Source: Burkholderiales bacterium
GTDB taxonomy: Bacteria; Pseudomonadota; Gammaproteobacteria; Burkholderiales; Burkholderiaceae_E
Direction of reading: 5' to 3'
Assembly: GCA_020248665.1 (NCBI GenBank)
Contig: JADCHE010000151.1
Location: 1-32,807 of the forward strand
Length of the DNA stretch: 32,807 nucleotides
In this document: piece after piece, positions 144 through 31,885 of the stretch
How positions within the stretch are numbered: position 1 is the stretch's first letter
Layout: every line of letters starts with the position of its first letter
Notes under the pieces: generated by a model
The model's input: only the letters and a program-made list of their open reading frames with translations
Database searches by the model: none
What the model was told of the DNA's origin: nothing
Position numbers and translations under genes: made by a program

Positions 144-1142
144 TCACCGCGTGCTCCGGCCGAGCTCGATCCGGCGTACCAGCGCGTGCAGCGCACGGTT
201 CACCGGCACCGGCACGCCGAGCGCCTCGCCGCGCGCGGCGACGTGGCCGTTCAACGCGTCGATCTCGGTCGGGCGCCCGAGCGCGAGGTCCTGCTCGGTC
301 GAGGAGGTCGCCGAGGACATCGCCGCGCCGAGACGCAGCGCGGCCGCGTGGAGCGCGTCGGCGTCGTCGATCGGCACGCCCTCGGCGCGCGCGACCGCGA
401 CGCACTCGCCGATCGTCGCGCGCATCGTCGCGGCGATGCCCGCGTCGGCGACCAGCTCGCCGTAGCGGGCGCGGGTCAGCGCGGAGATCGCGTTGAACGC
501 CGCGTTCATCGTCAGCTTGGTCCACAGCGCCGCGCGCACGTCGGGCACGGTCGGGCAGGACACGCCCGCGCGCTCGAAGGTGGCGGCGACCCGCGCGACG
601 CGCGCGGCATCGCCGCCACCCGGCCCACCGGGCACCTCGCCGAGCACCAGATCGCCGCGCCCGGCGTGCACCACGTGGCCCGGCCCGCCCATCGACGCAC
701 CGACGTAGACCACCGCGGCGACCGGGTCCAGGCCGGGCGCCGCGGCCCGGGCGCGCTCGACGTTGTCGACGCCGTTCTGCATCGATACCACGGTCGCGCC
801 CGGGCGCAGCCGGGGCAGCAGCTCGCGCGCGGCCGACGGTGTGTCGGAGGTCTTCACGCACAGCAGCACCAGGTCGGCGTCGCGGACCGCCTCGGCCGAG
901 ATGTCGGCCTCGACGCGGACCGTGGTGCGCGCCCCGCCGCTGTCCCACCACAGGCCGCGCGCGCGGATCGCCTCGACGTGCGCCGGTCGGCCGACCAGCA
1001 CGACCGGCGCGCCGGCGAGTGCGAGCTTCGCGCCGAAGTGGCAGCCGACCGCGCCGGCGCCGAACACCGCCACCCGTGGCCACGCCCCGGGAGCCACCGC
1101 CGATGCCACGCCCGCGTGCGTCATCACCTTCTCCGTCGTCAT
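144..1142 (-). CDS. panE: 2-dehydropantoate 2-reductase (ketopantoate reductase, ApbA/PanE family)
   Basis: Predicted NADPH-dependent reduction of 2-dehydropantoate to pantoate for pantothenate and CoA synthesis, in the cytosol. The N-terminal Rossmann fold shows a GAGAVG nucleotide loop (about residues 25-30), a VKTSDT segment and the MQNGVDN motif. The C-terminal helical domain has the family signature LWTKLTMNAAFNAISAL with its catalytic Lys, then the GRPTEIDALNG substrate-binding segment. Length (332 aa) is slightly above the usual 290-310. Several ApbA-fold paralogues act on other 2-oxo acids, so the exact substrate is not certain. Start chosen at 1142 because a TAGAAT box lies 7 nt upstream; an alternative ATG at 1124 has a GGAG about 6 nt before it. 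Divergent from AMP nucleosidase. Confidence 0.87.
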   Translation of the reverse strand: MTTEKVMTHAGVASAVAPGAWPRVAVFGAGAVGCHFGAKLALAGAPVVLVGRPAHVEAIRARGLWWDSGGARTTVRVEADISAEAVRDADLVLLCVKTSDTPSAARELLPRLRPGATVVSMQNGVDNVERARAAAPGLDPVAAVVYVGASMGGPGHVVHAGRGDLVLGEVPGGPGGGDAARVARVAATFERAGVSCPTVPDVRAALWTKLTMNAAFNAISALTRARYGELVADAGIAATMRATIGECVAVARAEGVPIDDADALHAAALRLGAAMSSATSSTEQDLALGRPTEIDALNGHVAARGEALGVPVPVNRALHALVRRIELGRSTR

Positions 1143-1148
1143 CGGGCC

Positions 1149-1171
1149 GATTCTAGGCGCGCCGTAGAATC
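1149..1171. promoter_or_regulatory. Palindromic divergent promoter between panE and amn
   Basis: GATTCTA (1149-1155), a 9-nt core containing the self-complementary GGCGCGCC, and TAGAATC (1165-1171) form a near-perfect palindrome. Each arm reads TAGAAT outward: 1155-1150 for the reductase (minus) and 1165-1170 for AMP nucleosidase (plus). Both look like sigma70 -10 boxes, so two polymerases could not bind at once. No convincing -35 element is visible on either side. A dimeric operator is the other reading. Confidence 0.5.
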
Positions 1172-1201
1172 GCCCGATTCCATCTCCGAGCCGATCCGCC
1201 C

Positions 1202-2764
1202 ATGACCGCCCCGTTCTTCGCACCGCAGCGCTTCGATTCGCCCGAGGCCGCGCTCGCCCGCGTCCGCGAGATCTACGACGCCGGCGTAGCGCACCTGCGC
1301 GACGCGCTGCGGCGCTACGTGGCCGGCGAGGACGCGGTCGGGCGAGTCCGTGCCCACTATCCGTTCGTCCGCGTCGAGACCGACACCGTGGCGCGGGCCG
1401 ACTCTCGGCTCGCCTACGGCTTCGTCGCCGGGCCCGGCACGTTCGAGACGACGCTGACCCGCCCCGACGTGTTCGGGAACTACTACGCCGAGCAGTTCCG
1501 GCTGCTGGTCGAGAACCACGGTGTGACGCTCACCGTCGGCACCAGTCACGCGCCGATCCCGGTGCACTTCGCGTTCCCCGAGCACGCGCACGTCGAGGCC
1601 GAGCTCGACGCCGCGCGGCTCACGCGGATGCGCGACCTGTTCGACCTGCCCGACCTCGCGTCGATGGACGACGGCATCGCCAACGGCACGCACGAGCCGC
1701 GGCCCGGCGAGCCGGATCCGCTCGCACTGTTCACCGCGCCGCGCGTCGACTACTCGCTGCACCGGCTTCGGCACTACACCGGCACCGCGCCCGGACACTT
1801 CCAGAACTTCGTGCTGTTCACCAACTACCAGTTCTACGTCGACGAGTTCGTGCGGCTCGGCCGTCAGCTGATGTCGATGCCGGCCTCGGGCCAGGCGGGC
1901 GGCGACGGCTACGTCGCGTTCGTCGAGCCGGGGGACCGGGTGCACGCGCGCACGGGGCCGCTGCCGGCGGCCGCGCCGCCGATCGTCGACACCGGAGCGG
2001 GCCTGCCCGGCGCTGCGGTCGCCGACGAGGAGCCGTCCGACGCCGCCGCAGGCGAGCAGCGCCCCGCGCGGCTGCCGCAGATGCCCGCCTACCACCTGGT
2101 GCGCGAGGACGGCAGCGGCATCACGATGATCAACATCGGCGTCGGGCCCGCCAACGCGAAGACGATCACCGACCACGTCGCGGTGCTGCGGCCGCACGCG
2201 TGGATCATGCTCGGCCACTGCGCCGGGCTGCATGCGTCGCAGCGGCTCGGCGACTACGTGCTCGCGCACGGCTACGTCCGTGAGGACCACGTGCTCGACG
2301 AGGAGCTGCCGCTGTGGGTGCCGGTGCCGGCGCTCGCCGAGATCCAGGTCGCGCTGCAGGACGCGGTCGCCGACGTGACCCAGCTCTCCGGCTGGGAGCT
2401 CAAGCGGATCATGCGCACCGGCACGGTCGCGTCGACCGACAACCGCAACTGGGAGCTGCTGCCGCACCACGGCCCGACGCGGCGCTTCTCGCAGAGCCGC
2501 GCGATCGCGCTCGACATGGAGAGCGCGACGATCGCCGCCAACGGCTTCCGGTTCCGCGTGCCCTACGGCACGCTGCTGTGCGTGTCGGACAAGCCGCTGC
2601 ACGGCGAGATCAAGCTGCCAGGCATGGCTAACCGCTTCTACCGCGCGAGCGTCGACCAGCACCTGCGGATCGGCATGCGGGCGATCGAGCAGCTGCGCCG
2701 GCAGGGGGCGACGCGGCTGCACAGCCGCAAGCTCAGGAGCTTCGCGGAGGTGGCGTTCCAGTGA
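1202..2764 (+). CDS. amn: AMP nucleosidase
   Basis: Hydrolyses AMP to adenine and ribose 5-phosphate, helping to set the adenylate pool; cytosolic. The 520-aa product has the family's N-terminal AMP nucleosidase domain (about 1-220; RLAYGFVAGPGTFETT, DVFGNYYAEQF) and a C-terminal nucleoside-phosphorylase-like domain (from about 297; INIGVGPANAKT, MLGHCAGL, ALDMESATIAANGFRF, SDKPLHGEIKLPG). About 35-40 residues between the domains (roughly 245-290) are Ala/Pro-rich and look like a lineage-specific insertion, making it longer than the E. coli enzyme (about 484 aa). The start has no obvious Shine-Dalgarno; a TAGAAT box lies 31 nt upstream. Family assignment is secure. Confidence 0.95.
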   Translation: MTAPFFAPQRFDSPEAALARVREIYDAGVAHLRDALRRYVAGEDAVGRVRAHYPFVRVETDTVARADSRLAYGFVAGPGTFETTLTRPDVFGNYYAEQFRLLVENHGVTLTVGTSHAPIPVHFAFPEHAHVEAELDAARLTRMRDLFDLPDLASMDDGIANGTHEPRPGEPDPLALFTAPRVDYSLHRLRHYTGTAPGHFQNFVLFTNYQFYVDEFVRLGRQLMSMPASGQAGGDGYVAFVEPGDRVHARTGPLPAAAPPIVDTGAGLPGAAVADEEPSDAAAGEQRPARLPQMPAYHLVREDGSGITMINIGVGPANAKTITDHVAVLRPHAWIMLGHCAGLHASQRLGDYVLAHGYVREDHVLDEELPLWVPVPALAEIQVALQDAVADVTQLSGWELKRIMRTGTVASTDNRNWELLPHHGPTRRFSQSRAIALDMESATIAANGFRFRVPYGTLLCVSDKPLHGEIKLPGMANRFYRASVDQHLRIGMRAIEQLRRQGATRLHSRKLRSFAEVAFQ

Positions 2765-2774
2765 CGGCGCGCGC

Positions 2775-3319: not shown

Positions 3320-5422
<2,103 letters not shown>

Positions 5423-5500: not shown

Positions 5501-6208
5501 TCAGCCGCGCAGCGATGCCGCATCCAGCTCGATGGCCTCGACGTTCCTCGGCCCGCCGCGCCACGCGACCGCGCACGCGTGGCGCGTGTCGACCGCGACG
5601 TCGCGCAGCGTCCACGCGCCGGCCAGCGCGGCCGCCGAGCGCGCATCGGCGGGTACGTCCCAGCGCGGGCCGGCGTCGCCGTCGACGATGTCGATGGCGT
5701 CGAGCTTCAGCTGCAGCCCGATGCCGACGGCCTTCAGCAGCGCCTCCTTGCGCGCCCATGCGCGGGCGAACGCCGCGATCCGGGTGGCCTCGTCCGGCAG
5801 GTCGTCGATCCGCGCGCGCTCGCGCGGTCCGAACACGCGGCCGAAGTCGTCGGGCCGCGCCATCGACGGCGCCGTCTCCTGCACGTCGACGCCGACGGGC
5901 GTGTCTTCGGCGAGCGCGCACGCGATCCAGTCGCCCGAGTGGCTGAGGTTGAACGCCGGGCCCGGACCGTCGAGCGCGGGCTTGCCGTCGGCGTCGGCGA
6001 CCAGCCGCAGCGACGCGGGCGCGACGCCGGTGCGGCGGGCGAGCAGCACCCGCGCGAGCGCGCGCCCGAGCAGGTGGCGCGCGCGGTCGGCGTCGCGCAC
6101 GAAACGCGCGGCCCGCGCGCGCTCGGCGTCGTCGACGAGCGCCGCCGCGACGGCGAGGGCCGACGGGTCGGTGTCGAGCCGCAGCCGGGCGACGAGGACG
6201 GGCGTCAT
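5501..6208 (-). CDS. 4'-phosphopantetheinyl transferase (Sfp/Gsp type)
   Basis: Predicted to transfer the phosphopantetheine arm of CoA onto a conserved Ser of carrier proteins. The 235-aa length suits the two-lobed Sfp type. Visible signatures are NLSHSGDWIACAL (about 87-99), GVDVQ (106-110) and WARKEALLKAVGIGL (151-165). The Mg-binding set is usually Asp, Glu and Glu in GVDxE plus WxxKE; here Asp108 and Glu155 are present but the middle Glu is Gln110. That may change metal binding without abolishing it. The start at 6208 has no Shine-Dalgarno but a CAGAAT box 7 nt upstream, like the other probable leaderless genes here. No carrier-protein or NRPS/PKS gene is in the window, except a condensation-like fragment at 8069-8494. 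Confidence 0.88.
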   Translation of the reverse strand: MTPVLVARLRLDTDPSALAVAAALVDDAERARAARFVRDADRARHLLGRALARVLLARRTGVAPASLRLVADADGKPALDGPGPAFNLSHSGDWIACALAEDTPVGVDVQETAPSMARPDDFGRVFGPRERARIDDLPDEATRIAAFARAWARKEALLKAVGIGLQLKLDAIDIVDGDAGPRWDVPADARSAAALAGAWTLRDVAVDTRHACAVAWRGGPRNVEAIELDAASLRG

Positions 6209-6309
6209 CACCGCGATTCTGCCCGGCGGGGCGCGGGGGCGCGAGCGGCAGGCTGCCGGGCCGCGCCGCGCGCTGGACAGCCGGCCCCCGACGCAGGCAT
6301 GGTCGCGGG

Positions 6310-7480: not shown

Positions 7481-7486
7481 TACGAT
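7481..7486 (+). promoter_or_regulatory. -10 box placed for a leaderless yaeQ transcript
   Basis: TACGAT ends 8 nt before the yaeQ ATG and no Shine-Dalgarno is present. Transcription would begin at or next to the start codon. No clear -35. Confidence 0.5.
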
Positions 7487-7494: not shown

Positions 7495-8052
7495 ATGGCC
7501 CTGCGCTCCACCATCTACAAGCTCGAGCTGTCGGTCGCCGACATCGACCGCGGCGTCTACGCCGACCATGCGCTGACGCTCGCGCTGCACCCGTCCGAGA
7601 CCGAGGAGCGGCTGATGCTGCGCGTGCTCGCGTTCGCACTGTTCGCCGACGAGCGGATGCGCTTCGGCCGCGGGCTGTCGGCCGAGGACGAGCCCGACCT
7701 CGCGCGCATCGACGACACCGGCGCGATCGAGCTCTGGATCGAGGTCGGCCTGCCCGACGAGAAGTGGGTGCGCAAGGCGTGCGGACGCGCCGACCGGGTC
7801 GTGGTGCTCGCCTACGGCGGCAGCCGGGCCGACATGTGGTGGCGGCAGAACGAGGGCGCGCTCGCGCGGTGCGCGAACCTGGCGGTCGTCGCCGTCGACG
7901 CCGAGGCGTCGGCGTCGCTCGCGCGCCTCGCGGCGCGCTCGATGCGCCTGTCGGCGACGGTGCAGGACGGCCAGGCCTGGCTGTCGGACGGCCACGCGAG
8001 CGTCGCGGTCGTGCCGCGCTGGTGGAAGGGCGAGCGCGCGTCGGCCGGCTGA
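7495..8052 (+). CDS. yaeQ: YaeQ family protein
   Basis: 185 aa, closely following the YaeQ pattern along its whole length: MALRSTIYKLELSVADIDRG at the start, LALHPSETEERLMLRVLAFAL (about 23-43), DEPDLARIDDTGAIELWIEVGLPDEKWVRKAC (about 64-95), a WWRQNE segment (about 118) and LSATVQDGQAWLSD near the end. YaeQ proteins have a PD-(D/E)XK-like fold. A role in suppressing RfaH-loss defects was proposed for E. coli, but the molecular function is not established. The start is fixed by homology and by a TACGAT box 8 nt upstream. It ends 16 nt from the convergent gene at 8069-8494. Confidence 0.93.
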   Translation: MALRSTIYKLELSVADIDRGVYADHALTLALHPSETEERLMLRVLAFALFADERMRFGRGLSAEDEPDLARIDDTGAIELWIEVGLPDEKWVRKACGRADRVVVLAYGGSRADMWWRQNEGALARCANLAVVAVDAEASASLARLAARSMRLSATVQDGQAWLSDGHASVAVVPRWWKGERASAG

Positions 8053-8625: not shown

Positions 8626-9465
8626 TCAGCGCACGCGTCGCTTGAACGGCAGCGTGCTGGAGAGCCCCCCGTCGACCGCGAGCGCCTGCCCGTTGACGTA
8701 CGACGACTCGTCGCTTGCGAGGAAGAGCGCCGCCGCCGCGATCTCCTGCGGCAGGCCGTAGCGCTGCAGCGGGTTGATCTGGCCGAGCTTGGCCTCGTTG
8801 CCGCCGGCGCGCGCCGCGTCGAAGATCGGCCGCGTCATCCCGGTCTCGATCAGCCCCGGGCAGATCGCGTTGATCCGCACGCCGGTGCCCCAGAACGAGT
8901 TGGCGCTCGTCTGCACGAGGCTGATCACGCCGGCCTTGCTCGCGCTGTAGGGGTTGCCGCCGGCGTTCGCGCGCAGTCCCGCGACCGACGCCGTGCAGAC
9001 GATCGAGCCGCGCCCCTGCGCGACCATGTGCGCGCCCGCGTGCTTGGCGACGAGGAACGGGCCGATCAGGTTCACGCGCAGCACGTCCTGCCACAGCTCG
9101 ACCGTCTGCTCGGCGAGCGGCACGTCGCCGCCGCTGACGCCGGCGTTCGCGTAGGCGACGTCCAGGCCGCCGAGCTCGGCGATCGCGCGCGCGACGAACG
9201 CGCGCACGTCGGCCTCGTTGCCTGCATCGGCCGCGACCGCCACGGCCGTGCCGCCTGCGGCCCGGATCATCGCCGCGGTCTCCGCGACCGCCTCGCCCGC
9301 GCGGTCGACGACGAGCACCGCCGCGCCCTCGGCCGCGAACAGCCGCGATGACGCGCGGCCGATGCCGCTGCCTGCGCCGGTGACGATCGCACGCTTGCCG
9401 GCGAGCCGTCCCGCCGCGCGCGATGGGTCTCCGCCGACGACGGCGGGTCGCTTCTCGTGAGCCAT
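8626..9465 (-). CDS. Short-chain dehydrogenase/reductase (classical SDR)
   Basis: 279-aa NAD(P)-dependent oxidoreductase. The cofactor loop TGAGSGIG is at 29-36, the NAG motif at 107-109, and the catalytic set is Ser160, Tyr173 and Lys177 (YSASK), followed by the PG segment [10 protein letters not shown]. Asp54 at the end of beta-2 (VVDRAG) suggests preference for NAD over NADP. Many SDRs of this layout oxidise secondary alcohols or hydroxyacyl-CoA; the substrate is not readable. Start is firm: GGAGGAGG lies just before the ATG (9470-9479), one of the strongest ribosome binding sites in the window. Only 38 nt separate it from the divergent YecA-like gene. Confidence 0.92.
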
Positions 9466-9490: not shown

Positions 9491-9496
9491 TACGAT
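9491..9496 (+). promoter_or_regulatory. -10 box for a leaderless yecA-like transcript
   Basis: TACGAT ends 7 nt before the ATG at 9504. No Shine-Dalgarno for this gene: the GAGG run here serves the opposite-strand SDR. Confidence 0.5.
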
Positions 9497-9503: not shown

Positions 9504-10304
<801 letters not shown>

Positions 10305-12499: not shown

Positions 12500-13624
12500 T
12501 CAGGGCGTCGCGATCGCGCCGAGCGCGACGACCTCGAAATCGGAGCCGCGGATCCGGGCGAGCTCGGCGGCGAGCCGCGCGACGTCCCAGCCGGGGTCGG
12601 GCGCGCCCTCGAGCGTCAGCGCGGGGCCGACGCCGACCACGATCGCGCCGTAGGTCTTGAGCGCCTGCAGGATCGCGCGCGCCTCGACGCTCGCGTCCGC
12701 GGGGATCGTCACGTCGGCCTTCAGGCGCAGCCGTGCGCCCGCGGGCGGCAGCGCCGCGTCGTCGGCGTGCGCGAGCGGGCCGCGCGCCGGCGCGACCCAG
12801 GCGGCGCGCAGCGCGGGCACGGTGACGCGCAGAGCATGGCGGATCACGCCCGAGGCGGCCTCGTCGTGCCGCACGAGCCCCGGGAAGACCGGCATGCCGG
12901 CGTCGCCGGACGGGCCGGCCGCGTCGGCCGGGGCGGCGTTCGCGAGATCGAGCCGCCACGCGGCCGCGGCCGTCGCGCTCCAGCCGCCACCCGCGACCGG
13001 CGAGGCACCGCGCAGCTCGTAGAGCACGCCGGCGTCGCGGTCGAGCACCGACAGGCGCGCCGACGGGTCGGCGGAGGCGGGCATCGACGCCGGGATCGGC
13101 CACGCACGCGGCGTCGCATCGCCGGCCACGGTCACCGTCACGCGCGGCTGCGTCCGGTCGACGACCGCATACGGCACGCCGGCGAGCAGGCCGAAGCCGG
13201 CCTTCAGCGACGCGCCGCCGCCGATCGCCGCCACCAGCGCCGACGACGCCGCGTCGGTGGCGCTCGCCAGCACGTCGCGGTTCCACGCATCGGTCGCCGG
13301 GAACGGGAGCGCGCCCGACAGCGTCGTGCCGACGCCGGGCAATGCCGCGACCGGCACGCCGTAGCGGACCTTGCCGGACAGCACGGGCACCGCGGCGAGC
13401 GACGAGGGCGTGGCCAAGCCGGCTTCGACCGACAGACCGAGCGGCTTGGAGACGGCGGCCGAATGCGACTCGCCGGCGATCGCGGACGTCGGCGGCGCAT
13501 CGGAACCGTCGCCGCCGCAGCCCGCGAGCAGCGCGGCTGCGAGCGCGGCCGGCGCGAGCCGGAACGGCTGCGCCGATCCGCCGGGCAGCCGGTACCGGGG
13601 GAGCAGAACGCGAGACAGAGCCAT
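12500..13624 (-). CDS. Secreted lipoprotein of an uncharacterised family
   Basis: 374 aa. Residues 1-36 are a lipoprotein signal peptide with lipobox LLAGC (Cys36), then a Gly/Ser linker. The mature part has features I recall from a widespread family of uncharacterised secreted proteins in actinobacteria, acidobacteria and proteobacteria: DAWNRDV, SVLDRDAGVLYEL, MPVFPGLVRHDEAASG, IRHALRVTVP, LPPAGARLRLKA, ILQALKTYGAIV, and GAPDPGWD followed by GSDFEVV. No catalytic function is known to me. An Ala-rich stretch (about 40-75) precedes the domain. The ATG at 13624 has a TACAGT box 6 nt upstream and no Shine-Dalgarno. It lies just upstream of the broken ohrR. Confidence 0.82.
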   Translation of the reverse strand: MALSRVLLPRYRLPGGSAQPFRLAPAALAAALLAGCGGDGSDAPPTSAIAGESHSAAVSKPLGLSVEAGLATPSSLAAVPVLSGKVRYGVPVAALPGVGTTLSGALPFPATDAWNRDVLASATDAASSALVAAIGGGASLKAGFGLLAGVPYAVVDRTQPRVTVTVAGDATPRAWPIPASMPASADPSARLSVLDRDAGVLYELRGASPVAGGGWSATAAAAWRLDLANAAPADAAGPSGDAGMPVFPGLVRHDEAASGVIRHALRVTVPALRAAWVAPARGPLAHADDAALPPAGARLRLKADVTIPADASVEARAILQALKTYGAIVVGVGPALTLEGAPDPGWDVARLAAELARIRGSDFEVVALGAIATP

Positions 13625-13630: not shown

Positions 13631-13636
13631 ACTGTA
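13631..13636 (-). promoter_or_regulatory. -10 box for a leaderless lipoprotein transcript
   Basis: TACAGT on the minus strand ends 6 nt before the ATG at 13624. Confidence 0.4.
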
Positions 13637-13686: not shown

Positions 13687-14769
13687 TCAGCGGGTTCGTG
13701 CGTCGATCGTGCCGGCAACGAGCGCGATCAGGCGGTCAATCCCCTCGGATTCCACCCATCTCGCGACCAGCACCAGGTCCCGGCGCGGATCGACCCAGAC
13801 GGTGTGGCCGCCGGCGCCGATCATGAACCAGCTGCCGGCGCCGGCCGACGGGTAGACGCGGCCCCGCTCGCCGTTGAGCCAGACCAGCATCCCGTACCAC
13901 GGCGCGATCGGGCAGGGCGTCGTCATCCGATCGATCCAGGCCTCGGACAGCAGGGCGCGGCCCTCCCAGCGGCCGCGCTGCAGCAGCAGCCGGGCGACGC
14001 GCGCCTGGTCGCGCGCCGAGATCGACACGCCGCCGCCCCAGTGCGTCCCGCCGGGCACCGACTGCGCTCGTCGCGCGACGCCGTCGCGACCGCGCAGCTC
14101 GATCCACGCGTCGTCGTAGCCGACCCAGCGCCAGTCGGAGGTCGCGCCGATCGGGCGCAGGATCGCCGCGTCGAACACCTCGGGCAGCGGCCGGCCGAAC
14201 AGGTGCATCAGCGCGAGCGACAGCTGGTTGATGCGGACGTCGTTGTACTCCCAGTAGGTGCCCGGCGCGCGCAGCGGCCGCGCGTCGCCCTTGCGGCCCG
14301 CGGCAGGGCCGCCGCCGTAGGCGACCACCCGGTACCGGTCGACGGTGTCGGGCACGCCGAGGCAGCTGCCTTCCCACTCGCTCGTCTGCTGCAGCAGCTG
14401 CGTCCAGGTGACCGCGGCGTTCCGGGGCGAGTCGAAGCCGATGCCGGGCAGGCGCGCGCGGACTGGCTCGTCGGGATCGGGCAGCAGGCCCGCGTCGTGC
14501 GCGACGCCGGCGAGGATCGCGAGGTACGACTTCGCGACGCTGAAGGTCAGGTCGGCGCGGTCGGGCTCGCCCCACGCGACGAGCTCGCGGCCGCGGTGGA
14601 GCACGACGCCCGAGCTCGGCCCGCGTGCGTGCACCGGACCGCGCAGCACGTTCCACGGCGGCGGGTCCTGCAGGTGGATGCCCCAGTTCGCCGGGTCCGC
14701 GGCGGGGTCGCGGGCCCAGTCGATCTCGTGGGCGATCGCGTGTGCGACGGCGTCGTCGAAGGGGCTCAT
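13687..14769 (-). CDS. Cytosolic serine hydrolase, beta-lactamase fold (class C-like)
   Basis: 360 aa. The SxxK nucleophile motif is FSVAK (Ser77, Lys80), and the second-element Tyr is in WEYNDVRIN (Tyr175); GGHTVW near the end fits the third element. These define the serine beta-lactamase / penicillin-binding-protein / esterase fold. No signal peptide is present, which argues against a beta-lactamase or cell-wall enzyme and for an intracellular esterase or amidase. It is divergent from an acyl-CoA ligase (53 nt between starts). Start chosen at 14769 with a TAGGAT box 7 nt upstream; an in-frame ATG 8 codons earlier would overlap that box. Confidence 0.87.
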   Translation of the reverse strand: MSPFDDAVAHAIAHEIDWARDPAADPANWGIHLQDPPPWNVLRGPVHARGPSSGVVLHRGRELVAWGEPDRADLTFSVAKSYLAILAGVAHDAGLLPDPDEPVRARLPGIGFDSPRNAAVTWTQLLQQTSEWEGSCLGVPDTVDRYRVVAYGGGPAAGRKGDARPLRAPGTYWEYNDVRINQLSLALMHLFGRPLPEVFDAAILRPIGATSDWRWVGYDDAWIELRGRDGVARRAQSVPGGTHWGGGVSISARDQARVARLLLQRGRWEGRALLSEAWIDRMTTPCPIAPWYGMLVWLNGERGRVYPSAGAGSWFMIGAGGHTVWVDPRRDLVLVARWVESEGIDRLIALVAGTIDARTR

Positions 14770-14776: not shown

Positions 14777-14788
14777 ATCCTATACGAT
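14777..14788. promoter_or_regulatory. Two interlocking divergent -10 boxes
   Basis: On the minus strand TAGGAT (14782-14777) ends 7 nt before the hydrolase ATG. On the plus strand TATACG/TACGAT (14781-14788) precedes the ligase, whose mRNA would have a leader with a GAGGAG site. The boxes share the central TATA and are flanked by CGATCG on both sides, so use of one should exclude the other. Confidence 0.5.
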
Positions 14789-14822: not shown

Positions 14823-16418
14823 ATGAACCCCGCCGTCCGCAGCCACACGCTCGGCGACCTGCTGCGCCGAACCGCCGCCCGACTGCCGGAGAAGCCCGCG
14901 ATCCGCTGCGGCGCGACGGCCTGGACGTTCCGGGAGTTCGACGCGGTGGTGAACCGGCTCGCCAACGGCCTGGCCGCGGGGCGCGCGGGCGCGCCGGTCG
15001 GCGTCGGCGACCGCGTCGCGGTGCTGTCGCGCAACTCGCACGCCTTCGCCGCGCTGCGCTTCGCGCTCGCGCGCCTCGGCGCGGTGCTGGTGCCGATCAA
15101 CTTCATGCTGAACGCCGACGAGGTCGCGTACATCCTCGAGCACTCGGCCGCGCGGCTGCTCGCGGTCGGCCCCGACATGGTGAAGCTCGGGCAGGACGCC
15201 GCCGCGAAGGGTACCTCGGTCGCGCACACCGTGTGGCTCGAAGGCGAGGATCCGGCCGAGCCGCCGGCGGGCATGACGAGCTTCGCCGGCCTGCTCGCCG
15301 ACGACGCGTCGGCCCCCGCGGTCGAGCTCGACGCGCGGATGCTCGCGCAGGTCATCTACACCAGCGGCACCGAGTCGCTGCCCAAGGGCGCGATGCTGAC
15401 CCACGAGGCGGTCTGCTGGGAGTACGTGAGCTGCGTCGTCGAGGGCGAGATCGCCGGGTCCGACTCGATGCTGCATGCGCTGCCGCTCTACCACTGCGCG
15501 CAGCTCGACGTGTTCCTCGGGCCCGCAGTCTACGTCGGCGCCTCGAGCGTGATCACCGGCAAGCCGACGCCCGACAACATCCTCGCGCTGCTCGCCTCGA
15601 ACCGCATCAACTCGTTCTTCGCGCCGCCGTCGATCTGGATCGCGCTGCTGCGCTCGCCGGCCTTCGCGACGACCGACCTGTCGGCGCTGCGCAAGGGCTA
15701 CTACGGTGCGTCGATCATGCCGGTCGCGGTGCTCAAGGAGATGGCCGAGCGGCTGCCGCAGGTGCGGCTGTGGAACTTCTACGGCCAGACCGAGATCGCG
15801 CCGCTCGCGACCGTGCTCAAGCCCGAGGACCAGCTGCGCAAGGCGGGCTCGGCGGGCCGCGCGGTGCTCAACGTCGAGACGCGGGTGGTCGACGACGCGA
15901 TGCGCGACGTGAAGCCCGGCGAGATCGGCGAGATCGTGCACCGCTCGCCGCAGCTGCTCGCCGGCTACTTCAACGACCCCGAGCGGACCGCGGCCGCGTT
16001 CGAGGGCGGCTGGTTCCACAGCGGCGACCTCGCGACGATCGACGACGAGGGCTACATCACCGTCGTCGACCGCAAGAAGGACATGATCAAGACCGGTGGC
16101 GAGAACGTCGCCTCGCGCGAGGTCGAGGAGACGGTCTACCGGCTCGACGGCGTGTCCGAGGTCGCGGTGGTCGGCCTGCCGCATCCGTACTGGATCGAGG
16201 CGGTGACCGCGTTGATCGTGCGCAAGCCCGGGTTCGAGGCGATGACCGAGGAGCAGGTGATCGCGCACTGCCGCGCGCAGATGGCGCACTTCAAGGTGCC
16301 GAAGAAGGTGATCTTCGTCGACGCGCTGCCGAAGAACCCGAGCGGCAAGTTGCTCAAGCGCGAGCTGCGGGTGAAGTACGAGGCGACGATGAAGGACCTG
16401 CCCGCGGAGAACCGCTGA
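14823..16418 (+). CDS. Acyl-CoA ligase (AMP-forming, FadD-like)
   Basis: 531-aa ANL-superfamily enzyme that activates a carboxylic acid to acyl-AMP and then acyl-CoA. The P-loop is YTSGTESLPKGAMLTH (about 178-193); the usual TTG/TSG is TES here, a variant that also occurs in long-chain-type relatives. Then come NFYGQTE (about 317), SGDLATIDDEGYITVVDRKKDMIKTGGENV with the hinge Asp and Arg (about 400-430), and the catalytic Lys in PKNPSGKLLKREL (about 505). All core motifs are present. Substrate length is not readable. GAGGAG (14809-14814) fixes the start. The remains of an amidohydrolase gene follow. Confidence 0.93.
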   Translation: MNPAVRSHTLGDLLRRTAARLPEKPAIRCGATAWTFREFDAVVNRLANGLAAGRAGAPVGVGDRVAVLSRNSHAFAALRFALARLGAVLVPINFMLNADEVAYILEHSAARLLAVGPDMVKLGQDAAAKGTSVAHTVWLEGEDPAEPPAGMTSFAGLLADDASAPAVELDARMLAQVIYTSGTESLPKGAMLTHEAVCWEYVSCVVEGEIAGSDSMLHALPLYHCAQLDVFLGPAVYVGASSVITGKPTPDNILALLASNRINSFFAPPSIWIALLRSPAFATTDLSALRKGYYGASIMPVAVLKEMAERLPQVRLWNFYGQTEIAPLATVLKPEDQLRKAGSAGRAVLNVETRVVDDAMRDVKPGEIGEIVHRSPQLLAGYFNDPERTAAAFEGGWFHSGDLATIDDEGYITVVDRKKDMIKTGGENVASREVEETVYRLDGVSEVAVVGLPHPYWIEAVTALIVRKPGFEAMTEEQVIAHCRAQMAHFKVPKKVIFVDALPKNPSGKLLKRELRVKYEATMKDLPAENR

Positions 16419-16987: not shown

Positions 16988-18268
16988 TCAGCCCGGCGGC
17001 CGCGGCAGGAACAGCACCAGGCGGGCGCCGCCCAGCGGCGAGTCCTCGATTCGCGCCTCGCCCCCGTGCAGGGTCATCGTGCGGCGGACCACCGCGAGAC
17101 CGAGCCCCCAGCCGGCGTGCCGCGCGTCGTCGTCGCGCGCGAGACGCCGGAACGGTTCGAACACCGCCTCGCGCTGCGCGGGGTCGACGCCGGGCCCGTC
17201 GTCGTCGATCGTCACCTCCACGCGGTCGTGCCGCACGGCCGCGCCGACGCGCACCGTCGAGCGGGCGTACTTCAGCGCGTTGCGCACGCCGTTTCGCACC
17301 GCGTAGGCGAGCAGCGACGGATCGAAGCGCGCGCGCAGCGGACCGTCGGCGGTGCACGACAGCGCACGCTCGCCGGCGATCGGTCGAAGGTGCCCGACCT
17401 GCCGCTCGAGCCAGGGCGCGAGGTCCTCGACGCCCGGCTCGAAGCGGATGTCCTCCCGCTCCAGCCGCGACCAGGTCAGGCTTGCGTCGATCAGCGCCTC
17501 GAGCTCGTCGAGGTCACCCTCGATCGCGGCCAGCGCCGCCTCGGTCGGGGGCTCGTCGCGCAGCGCATCGACGGCGAACCGGATCCTCGCCAGCGGCGTG
17601 CGCAGCTCGTGGCCGATCGCCGCGGCCATCTCGCGGCTGCGTTCCAGCAGGGCCTCGATGCGCGTCGCCATCGCGTCGAAGGCTTCGTTCAGCGGGGTGA
17701 TCGGCTCGCTGCGGGCGGCCCCGACGCGGGTGCTCCAGCGCCGCTGCGCGATCGCGGCGGCCGCGTCGCGCAGGCGCCGCAGGTCGCGCTGCACCGGGCG
17801 CATCCAGCCGATCGCGAGCCCGGCGGCCAGCAGTGCGAACAGCGCGGCGCTCGCCACCCGCAGCGCGTGCAGGCGGCGCATCGGTCCCCGGTACTCGGGG
17901 TTGTCCTCCAGCGTCACCGGCCCGAGCACCAGCGTGTGCGCCGGATCGAGCGGCTCGCGCCAGCGCAGCCCGTCGGCGTCGGCACCGGCCCGCTCGCCCG
18001 GGACCGTCTCCTCGAGCCGGACCGGGAAGGCGAACCGGGCGTCCACCTCCTGCACCGCGGCCGCGCGCTCCGCCTCGGGCACGGCGCGCAGCAGGTCCCC
18101 GCTCAGCCGGGCGATCGCCCCGAGCTGGCGCAGCAGGTAGGCGTGCGATTCGCGCTCGATCGCCCGCGAGATGCCGACGTCGATCGCCAGACCGGCCGCG
18201 GCGAACGCCACCACCAGCGCCCAGACCCGCCACCCGGGCATGCCGGCCAGCCGGCCCGGGTCGCTCAT
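16988..18268 (-). CDS. Sensor histidine kinase (RstB-like)
   Basis: 426-aa inner-membrane two-component sensor. A first membrane helix is at about 13-33, a periplasmic sensor region of about 100 residues follows, a second helix is at about 138-156, then HAMP (to about 210). HisKA has phospho-acceptor His220 in IGHELRTPLARIRF. The ATPase domain has N box NGVRNALKYA (about 328), G1 DDDGPGVD and G2 GWGLGLAVV. All catalytic boxes are intact. Its ATG overlaps the regulator's TGA (ATGA, 18265-18268), implying translational coupling. The partner's RstA-like signature and the envelope genes alongside suggest it senses an envelope or ionic signal, which is inference. Confidence 0.92.
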   Translation of the reverse strand: MSDPGRLAGMPGWRVWALVVAFAAAGLAIDVGISRAIERESHAYLLRQLGAIARLSGDLLRAVPEAERAAAVQEVDARFAFPVRLEETVPGERAGADADGLRWREPLDPAHTLVLGPVTLEDNPEYRGPMRRLHALRVASAALFALLAAGLAIGWMRPVQRDLRRLRDAAAAIAQRRWSTRVGAARSEPITPLNEAFDAMATRIEALLERSREMAAAIGHELRTPLARIRFAVDALRDEPPTEAALAAIEGDLDELEALIDASLTWSRLEREDIRFEPGVEDLAPWLERQVGHLRPIAGERALSCTADGPLRARFDPSLLAYAVRNGVRNALKYARSTVRVGAAVRHDRVEVTIDDDGPGVDPAQREAVFEPFRRLARDDDARHAGWGLGLAVVRRTMTLHGGEARIEDSPLGGARLVLFLPRPPG

Positions 18269-19020
18269 CGGGTCGCGGGGCCGTCCGGCGACGCGAACAG
18301 ATAGCCGCGGCCCCGCACGGTCTTGATGATGCGCGGGTCCTCGGCGTCGTCGCGGAGCTTGCGGCGCAGGCGCGAGACGCGTGCGTCGATCGATCGGTCC
18401 AGTCCGTCGAATGCCAGACCACGCAGCGATTGCATCAGTTCGTCCCTCGACACGATGCGGCCTGCAGACGAAGCGAGCGCCCACATCAAATCGAACTCGG
18501 CGGTGGTCAGCTGGACCGGTTCGCCGCGGACGCGCACGGTCCGCGCCGCCGCGTCGATCGTGACGCCGGCGGCCGACACGCTCCGCGCGGTCGTGCCGCC
18601 CGAGGCTGGCCCGGCCTCGGGCGGCACGACCGTCGGTGCGGTGCGCGCGCCGCGACGCAGCAGCGCGCGGATCCGCGCCGCGAGCACGGCGGGCGCCACC
18701 GGCTTGGCGACGTAGTCATCGGCCCCGAGCTCGAGCCCCACCACCTGGTCGATGTCGTCGTCGCGCGCCGTCAGCATCAGGATCGCGCCCGGGAATCCGC
18801 CCCGGACCGCGCGGCAGACGTCGAAGCCGTCGCCGCCGGGCAGGTTCACGTCGAGGATCACCAGATCGGGCGGATCGGTGCGGATCCGGTCGATCGCGAG
18901 GTCCCCGCGGCCGACGACGTCGACCTGCCACCCCTTGCGGCGCAGCGACTCGGCCACGAGCGCGGCGAGCCGCGCGTCGTCCTCGACCAGCAGCAGGCGG
19001 GCGGGTGCATCGTCGTGCAT
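18265..19020 (-). CDS. OmpR-family response regulator (RstA-like)
   Basis: 251 aa. The receiver domain (about 8-120) has the acidic pair Glu13-Asp14, phospho-acceptor Asp57, Thr84 and Lys106. The winged-helix DNA-binding domain (about 150-245) has LTTAEFDLMWAL, the recognition region DGLDRSIDARVSRLRRKL and RGRGYLF. The segment RGLAFDGLDRSIDARVSRLRRKL closely resembles E. coli RstA. The linker (about 122-150) is encoded by a perfect inverted repeat (18588-18632). A TACCGT box 8 nt before the ATG suggests its own leaderless promoter, besides read-through from the glycine-zipper gene 37 nt upstream. Confidence 0.94.
   Translation of the reverse strand: MHDDAPARLLLVEDDARLAALVAESLRRKGWQVDVVGRGDLAIDRIRTDPPDLVILDVNLPGGDGFDVCRAVRGGFPGAILMLTARDDDIDQVVGLELGADDYVAKPVAPAVLAARIRALLRRGARTAPTVVPPEAGPASGGTTARSVSAAGVTIDAAARTVRVRGEPVQLTTAEFDLMWALASSAGRIVSRDELMQSLRGLAFDGLDRSIDARVSRLRRKLRDDAEDPRIIKTVRGRGYLFASPDGPATR
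18588..18632. repeat. Perfect 19-bp inverted repeat inside the response-regulator gene
   Basis: Arms CGGTCGTGCCGCCCGAGGC (18588-18606) and its exact complement (18614-18632) flank a 7-nt loop. The element encodes the interdomain linker (VVPPEAGPASGGTT). The stem is far longer than any other in the window and should fold very stably in the mRNA. Confidence 0.9.
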
Positions 19021-19028: not shown

Positions 19029-19034
19029 ACGGTA
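19029..19034 (-). promoter_or_regulatory. -10 box for the response regulator-kinase pair
   Basis: TACCGT on the minus strand ends 8 nt before the regulator's ATG at 19020; no Shine-Dalgarno is visible. Confidence 0.4.
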
Positions 19035-28741: not shown

Positions 28742-28753
28742 AGTGTCGGTGCG

Positions 28754-29431: not shown

Positions 29432-29439
29432 GCCCGACG

Positions 29440-29670
29440 ATGAACGACGAGACCCTGTACGCCTTCCTCGACGACGAGCTGCCGCCCGAGCGCGTGGCCG
29501 AGCTGCTGTCCTCGCTCGAGCAGGGCGCACCCGGCGCGGCCGACGCGCGCGACCGGCTGACCACGATGCAGCTGATCAAGGACGCGGTCGCGGGCGTCGA
29601 GGCACCCGACGACGGCTTCACGCTGCGCATCCTCCGACGCCTCGACGCGCACCGCTCCGGCAGGGGCTGA
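29440..29670 (+). CDS. Miniature anti-sigma factor (RseA N-terminal-like), no membrane segment
   Basis: 76 aa. It starts MNDETLYAFLDDELPPERVAE, the pattern of anti-sigma domains that wrap the ECF factor, then continues SSLEQGAPGAADARDRL, QLIKDAVAGVEAPDDGFT and LRILRRLDAH. RseA-type anti-sigmas are about 200 aa with a membrane helix and periplasmic domain; here both are missing and the gene ends normally, so it should be a soluble cytosolic regulator. It may respond to a cytosolic cue or be a truncated form. A hairpin follows the stop. Confidence 0.78.
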   Translation: MNDETLYAFLDDELPPERVAELLSSLEQGAPGAADARDRLTTMQLIKDAVAGVEAPDDGFTLRILRRLDAHRSGRG

Positions 29671-29676
29671 GGGCGT

Positions 29677-29690
29677 CCGCCGCGCGGCGG
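29677..29690 (+). terminator. Hairpin after the sigma/anti-sigma pair
   Basis: CCGCCGCGCGGCGG is fully self-complementary and starts 6 nt after the anti-sigma stop. Another inverted repeat, GCCCGATC and GATCGGGC (29702-29719), lies just downstream. No T-run beyond TT. Confidence 0.4.
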
Positions 29691-29736
29691 TTCCCGGCCA
29701 AGCCCGATCTCGATCGGGCAAGGCGCCGATGACGGC

Positions 29737-29766
29737 TTGATGCCCAGCGCGGCAGTGGTGTAGGTT
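29737..29766 (+). promoter_or_regulatory. Sigma70-type promoter of the aldolase operon
   Basis: TTGATG (29737-29742), 18-nt spacer, TAGGTT (29761-29766) preceded by TG. The -10 ends 8 nt before the ATG, so the mRNA is probably leaderless. The best -35/-10 pair in the window. Confidence 0.6.
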
Positions 29767-29774
29767 GCTCCACG

Positions 29775-30440
29775 ATGACGCTACTGGACCTGTTCGAGCC
29801 GTCCCCGGCCTCGCCGATCGAGCCGGCCGCGCCGGTGATCCCCGTGATCGTCCTCGAGGACGCGCGCCACGCCGTGCCGCTCGCGCACGCGTGCGTCGCG
29901 GGCGGCGTGCGGGTGCTCGAGGTCACGCTGCGTACGCCCGCGGGCCTCGAGGCGATCCGCCGGATCGCGGCCGAGGTGCCCGACGCCTGGGTCGGCGCCG
30001 GCACCGTCACCAGTGCGGCCGACGTCGGCCGCGTGGCCGCGGTCGGCGCGCGTTTCGCGGTCTCGCCGGGGTTCGACCGCTCGGTCGCCGCCGCCGCGCG
30101 CGACCTCGGCCTGCCGCTGATGCCCGGCGTGATGACGCCGTCCGAGGCGATGGCCGCGATGGCCGTCGACTTGACCCTGCTCAAGTTCTTCCCGGCCGCT
30201 GCGGCCGGTGGCCTGCCGATGCTGAAGGCGCTGTCCGGCCCGTTCCCGGGCCTGCGCTTCTGCCCCACCGGCGGCGTCGACGCGCGCAACGCGGCCGAGT
30301 ACCTCGCGCTGGACAATGTCGTCGCGGTCGGCGGCTCGTGGCTGACCCCGCCCGCGGCGATCGCCCGCGAGGACTGGGCGGCGATCACCACGCTCGCGCG
30401 TGCGGCCGCGTCGCTGCGGGCGGCGCGGGTGCCCGCATGA
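29775..30440 (+). CDS. eda: KDPG/KHG aldolase (2-dehydro-3-deoxy-phosphogluconate aldolase)
   Basis: 221 aa class I aldolase that splits KDPG to pyruvate and glyceraldehyde 3-phosphate in the Entner-Doudoroff pathway (also acts on 4-hydroxy-2-oxoglutarate). The catalytic base Glu49 is in VLEVTLRT, phosphate-binding GAGTV is at 74-78, Schiff-base Lys137 is in LLKFFPA, and CPTGGV follows. All active-site residues are present. Length fits the family (about 205-225). No other Entner-Doudoroff gene is in view, so it may serve another 2-oxo acid. Its stop overlaps the next gene's ATG (ATGA). Confidence 0.93.
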   Translation: MTLLDLFEPSPASPIEPAAPVIPVIVLEDARHAVPLAHACVAGGVRVLEVTLRTPAGLEAIRRIAAEVPDAWVGAGTVTSAADVGRVAAVGARFAVSPGFDRSVAAAARDLGLPLMPGVMTPSEAMAAMAVDLTLLKFFPAAAAGGLPMLKALSGPFPGLRFCPTGGVDARNAAEYLALDNVVAVGGSWLTPPAAIAREDWAAITTLARAAASLRAARVPA

Positions 30441-31075
30441 ACGCCGTCGTGCTGGTCGTCGACGACCATCCGGTCGTGCCGCTGGCGCTGCGCAGCCTGA
30501 TCGAGACCCGCTTCGCCGGCGTGCGCGCGCTGCAGGCCTCGAGCCTGCGGCAGGCCAAGGCGATGTACCAGGACGAGCCAAGGCTCGCCGCCACGGTGCT
30601 CGACCTGCGGCTGCCGGACGTCGCCGGCCTCGAAGGCATCAGCGAGCTGCGCGCGCTGCGGCCCGAGGTGCCGATCGTCGTGTTCACAGGCCTGGACAGC
30701 GAACCGCTGCGGCGCAGCGCCGCCGCGCTCGGCGCCGCGGCGCTGGTCTGCAAGAACGAGAGCGCGACGATCCTGCTCGACCGGATCGCGCCGCTGCTCG
30801 CCGAGCGGCTGGACACGCTCGCCGAGTCGGCGGACGCGGCCGTCGCGCGCAATGCCGACACGATCGAGCTGTCGCCGCGCCAGCAGCAGATGTGGCAGTC
30901 GATCGCCGAGGGCTTGTCGAACGGCGAGATCGCCGAGCGCTACCGCATCAGCCTGAACACCACGAAGGCGCACGTGCGCGAGCTGCTGCAGCGGCTCGGC
31001 GTGCGCAACCGCACCGAGGCGGCGACGATGTACTACCGCGCCCGCCAGGCGCGCGCCCACGAGCCGGGCGCGTAG
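30437..31075 (+). CDS. NarL/FixJ-family response regulator
   Basis: 212 aa. The receiver domain has the acidic pair Asp9-Asp10, phospho-acceptor Asp56 in TVLDLRLP, Thr84 and Lys106. The C-terminal LuxR-type HTH (about 148-205) reads LSPRQQQMWQSIAEGLSNGE, then IAERYRISLNTTKAHVRELL. All phosphorylation residues are present. ATGA overlap with the aldolase implies one transcript and possible coupling. No cognate kinase is in the window. A strong palindrome begins at its stop codon. Confidence 0.92.
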   Translation: MNAVVLVVDDHPVVPLALRSLIETRFAGVRALQASSLRQAKAMYQDEPRLAATVLDLRLPDVAGLEGISELRALRPEVPIVVFTGLDSEPLRRSAAALGAAALVCKNESATILLDRIAPLLAERLDTLAESADAAVARNADTIELSPRQQQMWQSIAEGLSNGEIAERYRISLNTTKAHVRELLQRLGVRNRTEAATMYYRARQARAHEPGA

Positions 31076-31096
31076 CCCCGCGCGGGGCCTTGCCCC
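31075..31096 (+). terminator. Hairpin after the response regulator, with a competing hairpin
   Basis: GCCCC (31075-31079) can pair with GGGGC (31084-31088), giving the palindrome GCCCCGCGCGGGGC that starts in the TAG stop. The same GGGGC can instead pair with GCCCC at 31092-31096 across CTT. Most likely a terminator region; the two stems are mutually exclusive. Confidence 0.4.
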
Positions 31097-31116
31097 GCCC
31101 TGCGGCCGCACCGGGC

Positions 31117-31122
31117 TACCAT
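31117..31122 (+). promoter_or_regulatory. -10 box for a leaderless ABC-importer transcript
   Basis: TACCAT ends 7 nt before the ATG at 31130. A TTGCCC at 31090-31095 is 21 nt upstream, too far for a good -35. Confidence 0.45.
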
Positions 31123-31129
31123 CGCGGCG

Positions 31130-31885
31130 ATGACGGCTCCTCCACCGGCCGGCGCGCCGCTGCTCGCGCTGCGCGGCGTCGGCATGTGCTTCCCGAACGG
31201 CACCCGGGCGCTCGACCGCTTCGACCTCGAGGTCGCGCGCGGGGAGTTCCTGAGCCTGCTCGGGCCCTCGGGCTGCGGCAAGAGCACCGTGCTGCGGCTC
31301 GTCGCCGGGCTCGCCGCCCCGACCGAAGGCGCGGTGCTGCGGCCCTCGGGGGTGCGCGTCGGCGTGGTGTTCCAGGAGCCGACGCTGATGCCCTGGGCGA
31401 GCGCCTTCGACAACGTGCGCCTGCCGCTGCGGCTCGCCGGCCGCGGCGAGGCCGAGGTCCGCGAGGAGGTGATGGCGGTGCTCGCGCGCGTCGGGCTCGC
31501 AGACTTCGCGCGCTCCTACCCGCGCGAGCTGTCGGGCGGCATGCGGATGCGGGTGTCGATCGCGCGCGCGCTGGTCACCCGGCCGGAGCTGCTGCTGCTC
31601 GACGAGCCGTTCGCCGCGCTCGACGAGATCACCCGCGGCCGGCTCGACGACGACCTGCTCGATCTGTGGCGCGAGAACGGTCTGACGGTCGTCTTCGTGA
31701 CCCACAGCGTCTACGAGGCGGTGTACCTGTCGACGCGCGTCGCGGTGCTCGCCGGCCGACCCGGGCGGGTCGCCGACGCGATCGACGTCGACGCGGCCGA
31801 GCGGGGCGACGCGTTCCGCGCCGACCCTCGCTACGCCGCCTGGTGCCTGCGCGCCTCGGCGGCGCTGAAGGCGGCCGCGGCATGA
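31130..31885 (+). CDS. ABC importer ATPase (SsuB/TauB/ThiZ type)
   Basis: 251 aa. Walker A GPSGCGKST (45-53), Q-loop VVFQEPTLMPWA (Gln82), signature LSGGMRMR (134-141), Walker B LLLLDEPFAALDE (154-166) and the switch His in VFVTHSVYEA (about 190). The MPWA after the Q-loop and the LSGGM signature are typical of nitrate, sulfonate, taurine and pyrimidine-precursor importers. The substrate cannot be read. The permease ATG overlaps its stop (ATGA). Confidence 0.92.
   Translation: MTAPPPAGAPLLALRGVGMCFPNGTRALDRFDLEVARGEFLSLLGPSGCGKSTVLRLVAGLAAPTEGAVLRPSGVRVGVVFQEPTLMPWASAFDNVRLPLRLAGRGEAEVREEVMAVLARVGLADFARSYPRELSGGMRMRVSIARALVTRPELLLLDEPFAALDEITRGRLDDDLLDLWRENGLTVVFVTHSVYEAVYLSTRVAVLAGRPGRVADAIDVDAAERGDAFRADPRYAAWCLRASAALKAAAA

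What the first reader, a model, noticed from the sequence alone, without database searches (positions are those of the whole stretch)
1124..31130. Widespread -10 boxes 6-8 nt before start codons: probable leaderless mRNAs
Eight genes lacking a Shine-Dalgarno have TAnnnT ending 6-8 nt before the start codon: panE (TAGAAT, 7 nt), yaeQ (TACGAT, 8), the YecA-like gene (TACGAT, 7), lipoprotein 13624 (TACAGT, 6), hydrolase 14769 (TAGGAT, 7), the response regulator 19020 (TACCGT, 8), eda (TAGGTT, 8) and the ABC ATPase (TACCAT, 7). The phosphopantetheinyl transferase has the variant CAGAAT at 7 nt. In DNA this GC-rich, TAnnnT at a given offset is expected at well under 1%. Genes with strong GGAGG sites (SDR 9465, ligases 14823 and 23924, CaiB) lack it. 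The TAnnnT-plus-7 rule is known in Deinococcus and actinobacteria; I do not know it as a described habit of betaproteobacteria.
Basis: partly seen in the sequence, partly recalled or inferred. Interest (0 to 1): 0.72.

Follow-up and report, generated by a model that had tools for sequence, protein, structure and literature searches.

The report
Leaderless genes in a GC-rich betaproteobacterium
About one gene in twenty-two of this bacterium has its promoter box so close to the start codon that its messenger RNA should begin right at the first codon, an already described way of starting genes that stands out here because the DNA is so GC-rich.

Summary
In detail: all eight TANNNT boxes lie 6-8 nt before ATG starts. 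In 1.2 Mb of the same genome 8 of 32 window genes and 49 of 1086 others (4.5%) carry the box. The peak at 6-8 nt is sharp, offsets 9-20 are sparse, and leadered promoters form a second hump. Boxed genes mostly lack Shine-Dalgarno sites, head transcription units, and keep the box at 6-8 nt in 27 of 28 congener orthologs. E. coli shows no peak; D. radiodurans does. Leaderless mRNA from a sigma-70-type -10 box is the best reading; there are no RNA data. It is not a new kind: Zheng 2011 lists 9 of 71 betaproteobacterial genomes with such genes, and 5'-end mapping found them in Burkholderia cenocepacia and Cupriavidus metallidurans. In the order the count exceeds control in 119 of 120 genomes; this genome's excess per Mb is ordinary. 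The window is a rich patch. The freshest by-product lies outside it: a 20-bp gap between two divergent genes round one symmetric ATTATAAT, unchanged in length in this genome and the six congeners where I found the pair.

The parts
1150..1155 (-). -10-type box TAGAAT, 7 nt before ATG of panE (ketopantoate reductase, 144-1142)
   Evidence: Pfam ApbA; box not found in the one ortholog examined, G006
144..1142 (-). panE, predicted leaderless
7481..7486 (+). -10-type box TACGAT, 8 nt before ATG of yaeQ (7495-8052)
   Evidence: TACAAT in 3 of 3 congener orthologs; Pfam YaeQ matched from residue 1
7495..8052 (+). yaeQ, predicted leaderless
9491..9496 (+). -10-type box TACGAT, 7 nt before ATG of the UPF0149/SEC-C (YecA-like) gene; it overlaps TATCGT on the other strand, 26 nt before SDR 9465
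   Evidence: box kept in 8 of 8 orthologs
9504..10304 (+). UPF0149 + SEC-C protein, predicted leaderless
8626..9465 (-). SDR, divergent partner, with GGAGGAGG upstream and therefore read as leadered
13631..13636 (-). -10-type box TACAGT, 6 nt before ATG at 13624
   Evidence: 1 of 1 ortholog
14777..14782 (-). -10-type box TAGGAT, 7 nt before ATG at 14769; back to back with TACGAT of ligase 14823 on the + strand
   Evidence: 7 of 7 orthologs, five of them with a start 31-42 codons further up and the box still 6-8 nt before it
13687..14769 (-).
14823..16418 (+). AMP-binding ligase, divergent partner, read as leadered (TACGAT at 34 nt, GAGGAG)
19029..19034 (-). -10-type box TACCGT, 8 nt before ATG at 19020
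   Evidence: no ortholog in the congener loci held
18265..19020 (-). response regulator (Response_reg + Trans_reg_C), predicted leaderless
29761..29766 (+). -10-type box TAGGTT, 8 nt before ATG of eda
   Evidence: TACGTT in 2 of 2 orthologs
29775..30440 (+). KDPG/KHG aldolase (eda), predicted leaderless
31117..31122 (+). -10-type box TACCAT, 7 nt before ATG at 31130
   Evidence: 6 of 6 orthologs, TACTAT in four and TACCAT in two
31130..31885 (+). ABC transporter ATPase, predicted leaderless
6216..6221 (-). variant box CAGAAT, 7 nt before ATG at 6208 (phosphopantetheinyl transferase); plausible, untested
   Evidence: no ortholog in the congener loci held

Best explanation
The TANNNT boxes are the -10 elements of sigma-70-type promoters placed so that RNA polymerase starts on or within a base or two of the start codon. 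These genes are therefore made as leaderless mRNAs, read by ribosomes that recognise a 5'-terminal start codon and not a Shine-Dalgarno site. They form a distinct class, about 4-5% of genes in the sampled part of this betaproteobacterial genome, mostly first genes of transcription units and often at divergent junctions. Shown by sequence: box, spacing, scarcity of Shine-Dalgarno sites, gene position, conservation. Inferred: that RNA starts at the codon and that the message is translated without a leader.
For: Peak at 6-8 nt in the first set (35 of 594) and again in a fresh set of 40 stretches (24 of 526), with sparse offsets 9-20 and a second, leadered hump at about 21-41 nt. The peak is also there without any gene calling: in the first 642 kb TANNNT-n-ATG occurs 49 times at n = 6-8 against 36 times over the nine spacings 12-20. 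Shine-Dalgarno 4-mers in 1 of 33 and 3 of 24 boxed genes against 250 of 559 and 203 of 502 others. Gene position over the two sets: boxed genes divergent from the upstream neighbour 38 of 57, same-strand gap under 25 nt 2 of 57; others 308 and 356 of 1061. A at hexamer position 5 in 30 of 63 boxed genes of three genomes against 27% of 593 TANNNT in the own-genome sample. Box at 6-8 nt kept in 27 of 28 congener orthologs of boxed window genes; among 62 orthologs of unboxed window genes only 5 have it, all of one gene. Own whole genome: TANNNTN{6,8}ATG 329 against 128 expected from N{12,20}/3. Controls with annotated starts: E. coli 2 of 97 genes, no peak; D. radiodurans plasmid MP1 8 of 79, peak. 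Congeners: 13 of 306 (G006) and 15 of 252 (G005, with a higher background).
Against: No RNA evidence for this organism. -35 elements are weak: best TTGACA match of 4 or more at spacers 16-18 in 9 of 63 boxed genes against 86 of 1087 others; TTG at spacer 17 in 6 of 63 against 0.3 expected, the best of 24 spacers looked at; of the eight window promoters only eda has a 4-of-6 match. The ATG preference is uneven: 31 of 33 in the first set but 20 of 24 in the fresh one (p = 0.62 there; combined 51 of 57 against 810 of 1061, p = 0.02). panE's box was not found in its one examined ortholog. My caller scores the in-frame stretch upstream as coding or not, so an AT-rich box could push a start to just behind it; that bias would not favour 6-8 nt over 9-20 nt, but starts can be wrong, as I think it is for the M20 peptidase in L003.
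Confidence: 0.9

Rival explanations
1. Chance: in a few hundred genes some TANNNT fall near starts and the reader picked them.
For: The window is richer than the rest of the genome (8 of 32 against 49 of 1086), so picking inflated the rate.
Against: Shuffles give a mean of 2.7 and at most 7 against 35 observed; replicated in 526 fresh genes; kept in 27 of 28 orthologs.
Confidence: 0.01
2. The boxes are -10 elements, but transcription starts so that a very short leader (about 1-10 nt) remains; the genes are 'near-leaderless'.
For: Spacings of 6, 7 and 8 nt occur in 31, 21 and 11 of 63 boxed genes, so an exact +1 at the first base is not required for all; B. cenocepacia has both kinds (72 start sites at the codon, 42 within 10 nt, PMC4603805).
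Against: Offsets 9-20 are sparse (21 hits over 12 offsets against 49 over 3, genes outside the window), and 6-8 nt is the usual distance from a -10 hexamer to +1 (recalled).
Confidence: 0.07
3. The motif is a conserved regulator site or a translation signal in a longer leader, not a promoter.
For: Weak -35 elements.
Against: TAnAAT-like content, the same motif at about 21-41 nt before other genes, few Shine-Dalgarno sites, and no common function among the boxed genes scanned.
Confidence: 0.02

Closest known systems
TA-led leaderless genes of bacteria (Zheng et al. 2011, PMC3160421; passages read)
   Same: TANNNT about 12 bp before the start, no Shine-Dalgarno; reported in 9 of 71 betaproteobacterial genomes at 2.8-10.6% of genes
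   Different: This genus is an additional case; nothing in kind
Leaderless transcripts of Burkholderia cenocepacia J2315 (PMC4603805; passages read) and Cupriavidus metallidurans CH34 (PMC7563307; passages read)
   Same: Betaproteobacteria; 5' ends mapped at or near start codons; TA-rich motif directly upstream in B. cenocepacia; TAnAAT -10 consensus in C. metallidurans
   Different: Those are mapped by RNA; here by sequence only. Those report enrichment for transcription regulators or the transcription class; here the Pfam names are mixed, with 4 DNA-binding regulators among the 8 window and 28 other boxed genes scanned, and enrichment was not tested
-10 region adjacent to ORFs in Deinococcus-Thermus (PMC12340547; passages read)
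   Same: Same box-next-to-start layout
   Different: About 30% of ORFs there, about 4-5% here
Bidirectional promoters of E. coli and Salmonella plasmids (PMC12825309, PMC10268837; search listings and abstract starts only)
   Same: Pseudo-symmetric sequence driving divergent transcription
   Different: Here one side, and at the argA-type/HrpA-like pair apparently both sides, would be leaderless

Membership tests
TA-led leaderless genes | TANNNT at a fixed short distance before the start, above shuffled background | tested here: met
   35 of 594 against a mean of 2.7; 24 of 526 in a fresh set
TA-led leaderless genes | No Shine-Dalgarno site | tested here: met
   4-mers in 1 of 33 and 3 of 24 against 250 of 559 and 203 of 502
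TA-led leaderless genes | First or single gene of a transcription unit | tested here: met
   2 of 57 have a same-strand upstream gap under 25 nt against 356 of 1061
TA-led leaderless genes | Preference for ATG as start (recalled as a trait of leaderless mRNA) | tested here: inconclusive
   51 of 57 against 810 of 1061, p = 0.02, but 20 of 24 against 385 of 502, p = 0.62 in the fresh set alone
TA-led leaderless genes | Mapped RNA 5' end at the start codon | not testable with these tools
   no RNA data
sigma-70 promoter | TAnAAT-like -10 element | tested here: met
   position 5 is A in 30 of 63 against 27% of 593 TANNNT in the own-genome sample, p = 0.001
sigma-70 promoter | -35 element 16-18 nt upstream | tested here: inconclusive
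   TTG at spacer 17 in 6 of 63, 0.3 expected; whole-hexamer scores of 4 or more in 9 of 63 against 86 of 1087
Bidirectional promoter | Opposite-strand -10 box overlapping or abutting at close divergent pairs | tested here: met
   10 of 15 close divergent boxed genes against 4 of 42 other boxed genes; background among all TANNNT 145 of 590
Bidirectional promoter | Transcripts mapped in both directions from the box | not testable with these tools
   no RNA data

The most novel reading that the evidence does not exclude
In this genus some divergent genes share one symmetric -10 box. In the extreme case an argA-type gene (AA_kinase + GNAT) and an HrpA-like helicase gene are separated by only 20 bp, six bases + ATTATAAT + six bases, so that both messages would be leaderless from a single box: a minimal bidirectional leaderless promoter, held without a length change in this genome and in the 6 congeners in which I found the pair.
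Probability: 0.5. Interest if true: 0.55.

Novelty: new member of a known kind. Interest (0 to 1): 0.33.

Why it matters
It places a 73% GC betaproteobacterial genus among those that appear to use leaderless mRNA, and the order survey suggests that the habit is spread over the order and is merely easiest to see where GC is high. By inference, start-site callers that expect a Shine-Dalgarno may misplace some of these starts. The conserved symmetric box between two divergent genes offers a very small test bed for bidirectional, leaderless transcription.

Tried and rejected
Reversed-pattern control (329 against 192): kept only as a first look, since in the sample it runs higher than the same pattern at longer spacings.

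Idea that leaderless yaeQ is general: rejected; of 60 yaeQ loci from named genomes only 1 shows TANNNT at 5-9 nt, and that through a start shifted by seven codons in a distant homologue, L098.

Idea that this genome is unusually leaderless: rejected; its ratio (2.56) is the highest of 120 in the order, though G241 and G067 of the class are higher, and its excess of 40 per Mb lies within the 15-86 per Mb of the 17 genomes for which one search printed that figure (all from the high-ratio end of the list, with rounded genome sizes).

First Shine-Dalgarno count read the wrong slice, inside the coding region; discarded, redone. One search, a search of 300 genomes in the order for the argA-type/HrpA-like box, was mis-specified by one base (it misses the own genome) and says nothing about spread beyond the genus; its 5 matches were not followed. 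The L003 pair (M20 peptidase / EamA) first looked leaderless on both sides; congener sequence suggests to me that the peptidase starts further in, with a leader. The gene on pMOL30 that I take for copJ (named leaderless in PMC7563307; the record does not name it, the assignment is mine) has no TANNNT at 6-8 nt, so the exact motif may miss some leaderless genes. The paper search gave nothing of use.
Full report
What was checked. One search finds TANNNT 6-8 nt before ATG for all eight genes named, with the hexamers and spacings of the finding; one search gives their coordinates and confirms CAGAAT at 7 nt for the phosphopantetheinyl transferase. A gene caller that I wrote picks starts by the coding score of the open frame and by start-codon type and scores no upstream motif; it chose the same eight starts. 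It does score the in-frame stretch upstream as coding or not, so an AT-rich box could push a start to just behind it; the counts made without gene calls guard against that.

Is it more than chance. Genes cut by a contig edge or without 80-100 nt of upstream sequence were dropped before counting. In the first set (window + 40 stretches, 594 genes) 35 have the box at 6-8 nt; dinucleotide shuffles of the 20 nt upstream give a mean of 2.7 and a maximum of 7 in 50 rounds. The second 40 stretches served as a fresh test: 24 of 526 (retraining the caller on all stretches changed the first set to 33 of 592). In 3-nt bins for all 1086 genes outside the window the counts from 0-2 to 57-59 are 1, 4, 49, 7, 4, 7, 3, 11, 10, 23, 18, 15, 14, 15, 5, 6, 10, 6, 9, 14. 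The 49 at 6-8 are set apart from the ordinary leadered promoters at about 21-41 by a sparse stretch. Without gene calls, the first 642 kb hold 49 TANNNT-n-ATG at n = 6-8 and 36 over n = 12-20. Whole-genome pattern counts agree: TANNNTN{6,8}ATG occurs 329 times against 385/3 = 128 for N{12,20}, an excess of about 200, roughly 4% of the some 4,700 genes implied by the sample.

What the boxed genes share. Shine-Dalgarno 4-mers: 1 of 33 and 3 of 24 against 250 of 559 and 203 of 502. Position: over both sets 38 of 57 are divergent from the upstream neighbour (others 308 of 1061), and 2 of 57 follow a same-strand gene within 25 nt (others 356 of 1061). Start codon: ATG in 51 of 57 against 810 of 1061, but in the fresh set alone the difference is not significant (20 of 24 against 385 of 502). 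Hexamer position 5 is A in 30 of 63 boxed genes of three genomes against 27% of 593 TANNNT in the own-genome sample; the -35 is weak, with TTG at spacer 17 in 6 of 63 (0.3 expected) but whole-hexamer scores only slightly raised. Functions are mixed: enzymes, transporters, tsaD, a globin and 4 DNA-binding regulators among 36 boxed genes scanned, the 36 including one with a 9-nt spacing.

Conservation. Eight congeners were given by the tool. Only the congener loci held were examined, so not every gene had a chance in every congener. Seven of the eight boxed window genes have 28 orthologs there (at least 50% identity), and a box at 6-8 nt before an in-frame start is present in 27: yaeQ 3 of 3, UPF0149 8 of 8, 13624 1 of 1, 14769 7 of 7, eda 2 of 2, ABC 6 of 6, panE 0 of 1; the response regulator had no ortholog there. 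Fifteen of the 24 unboxed window genes have 62 orthologs, of which 5 have a box, all of MFS gene 10309, which in this genome lies 4 bp behind the UPF0149 gene and in five congeners has its own leaderless-type promoter. The search asked for TANNNT, so the invariance of T, A and T is built in; the retention rate is not. At 14769 five congeners start 31-42 codons further up and the box has stayed 6-8 nt before the start. Congener gene sets show the same class: 13 of 306 (G006, GC 72%) and 15 of 252 (G005, GC 64%, with a higher background at other offsets).

Controls and spread. With annotated starts, E. coli K-12 has 2 of 97 genes with a box at 6-8 nt and no peak; D. radiodurans plasmid MP1 has 8 of 79 and a peak. 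In 120 genomes drawn from the order, the own included, the count at 6-8 nt exceeds one third of the count at 12-20 nt in 119, by more than 3 standard errors in 56; the own genome has the highest ratio (2.56), but its excess per Mb (40) is within the 15-86 of the 17 genomes for which I printed it. In the class, genomes G241, G067, G142 and G022 also have ratios of 1.8-2.9; I picked these rows by eye and did not rank all 232. The organism is placed among betaproteobacteria by the names of its nearest YaeQ relatives, Rhodocyclales and others at about 57-63% identity; its own name is not known to me. Among those 60 named yaeQ loci only one has a box at 5-9 nt, through a shifted start, so leaderless yaeQ looks peculiar to this genus.

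What is known. Zheng et al. 2011 (PMC3160421, passages) describe this signal as TANNNT about 12 bp upstream and list betaproteobacteria with 9 of 71 genomes, 2.8-10.6% of genes. In B. cenocepacia 72 primary start sites fall on the start codon and 42 within 10 nt, 24 of these transcripts being tRNAs, with a TA-rich motif directly upstream (PMC4603805, passages). In C. metallidurans 4.67% of primary start sites give leaderless mRNAs and the -10 consensus is TAnAAT (PMC7563307, passages).

A by-product. In a first count over own, G006 and G005 an opposite-strand TANNNT overlaps or abuts the box in 14 of 38 divergent and 3 of 25 same-strand boxed genes, while 145 of 590 TANNNT anywhere in the first own set have such a neighbour. 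In the own genome, of 15 boxed genes within 80 bp of a divergent neighbour 10 have it, against 4 of 42 other boxed genes (p = 5e-5; fresh set alone 4 of 7 against 2 of 17, p = 0.04). Against this: one pair enters the 15 twice because both its genes are boxed, and one entry of the first count (L013) has a start overlapping its neighbour, which may be a calling error. In the window, SDR 9465 and UPF0149 9504 share GTACGATAC, the first with GGAGGAGG before its start, the other leaderless; ligase 14823 and 14769 have abutting boxes. The extreme is L182 (contig 48): an argA-type gene and an HrpA-like helicase gene (Pfam AA_kinase + GNAT; DEAD; the names argA and hrpA are my inference) 20 bp apart, CAT-6-ATTATAAT-6-GTG, with box and length unchanged in own, G001, G002, G003, G005, G006 and G007 while the flanks vary; G008 (75% complete) gave no clear homologue and G004 was not searched. 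The helicase's GTG is not proven: an in-frame TTG lies 6 nt before it. Paper searches for 'leaderless' with bidirectional promoters or divergent transcription (12 papers listed of 138 and of 224) showed one paper with all three terms (Pyrococcus, PMC6640164, an archaeon) and two bacterial ones with 'leaderless' and one mention of 'divergent transcription' (PMC3160421, PMC3898074), the second of which I did not open; this is a narrow search, not proof of absence.

Verdict. Real, well supported as leaderless transcription, ordinary in kind. The window is a rich patch of a habit that runs at about 4-5% in the sampled genome and appears spread over its order.

Noticed in passing
L182:9271-9296 (own contig 48): Symmetric ATTATAAT in a 20-bp gap between divergent argA-type and HrpA-like genes, unchanged in length in this genome and the 6 congeners where the pair was found.
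   Followed up: partly
window:10309-11577: MFS gene sits 4 bp behind the UPF0149 gene here but has its own leaderless-type promoter in five congeners: a switch between operonic and leaderless expression inside one genus.
   Followed up: partly
window:1-32807: The window holds 8 boxed genes of 32, against 49 of 1086 elsewhere; why this patch is so rich is unexplained.
   Followed up: no
window:13687-14769: In five congeners the start lies 31-42 codons further up, yet the box keeps its distance to the start.
   Followed up: partly
L003:17522-18553: tsaD (tRNA threonylcarbamoyl transferase) is among the predicted leaderless genes.
   Followed up: no
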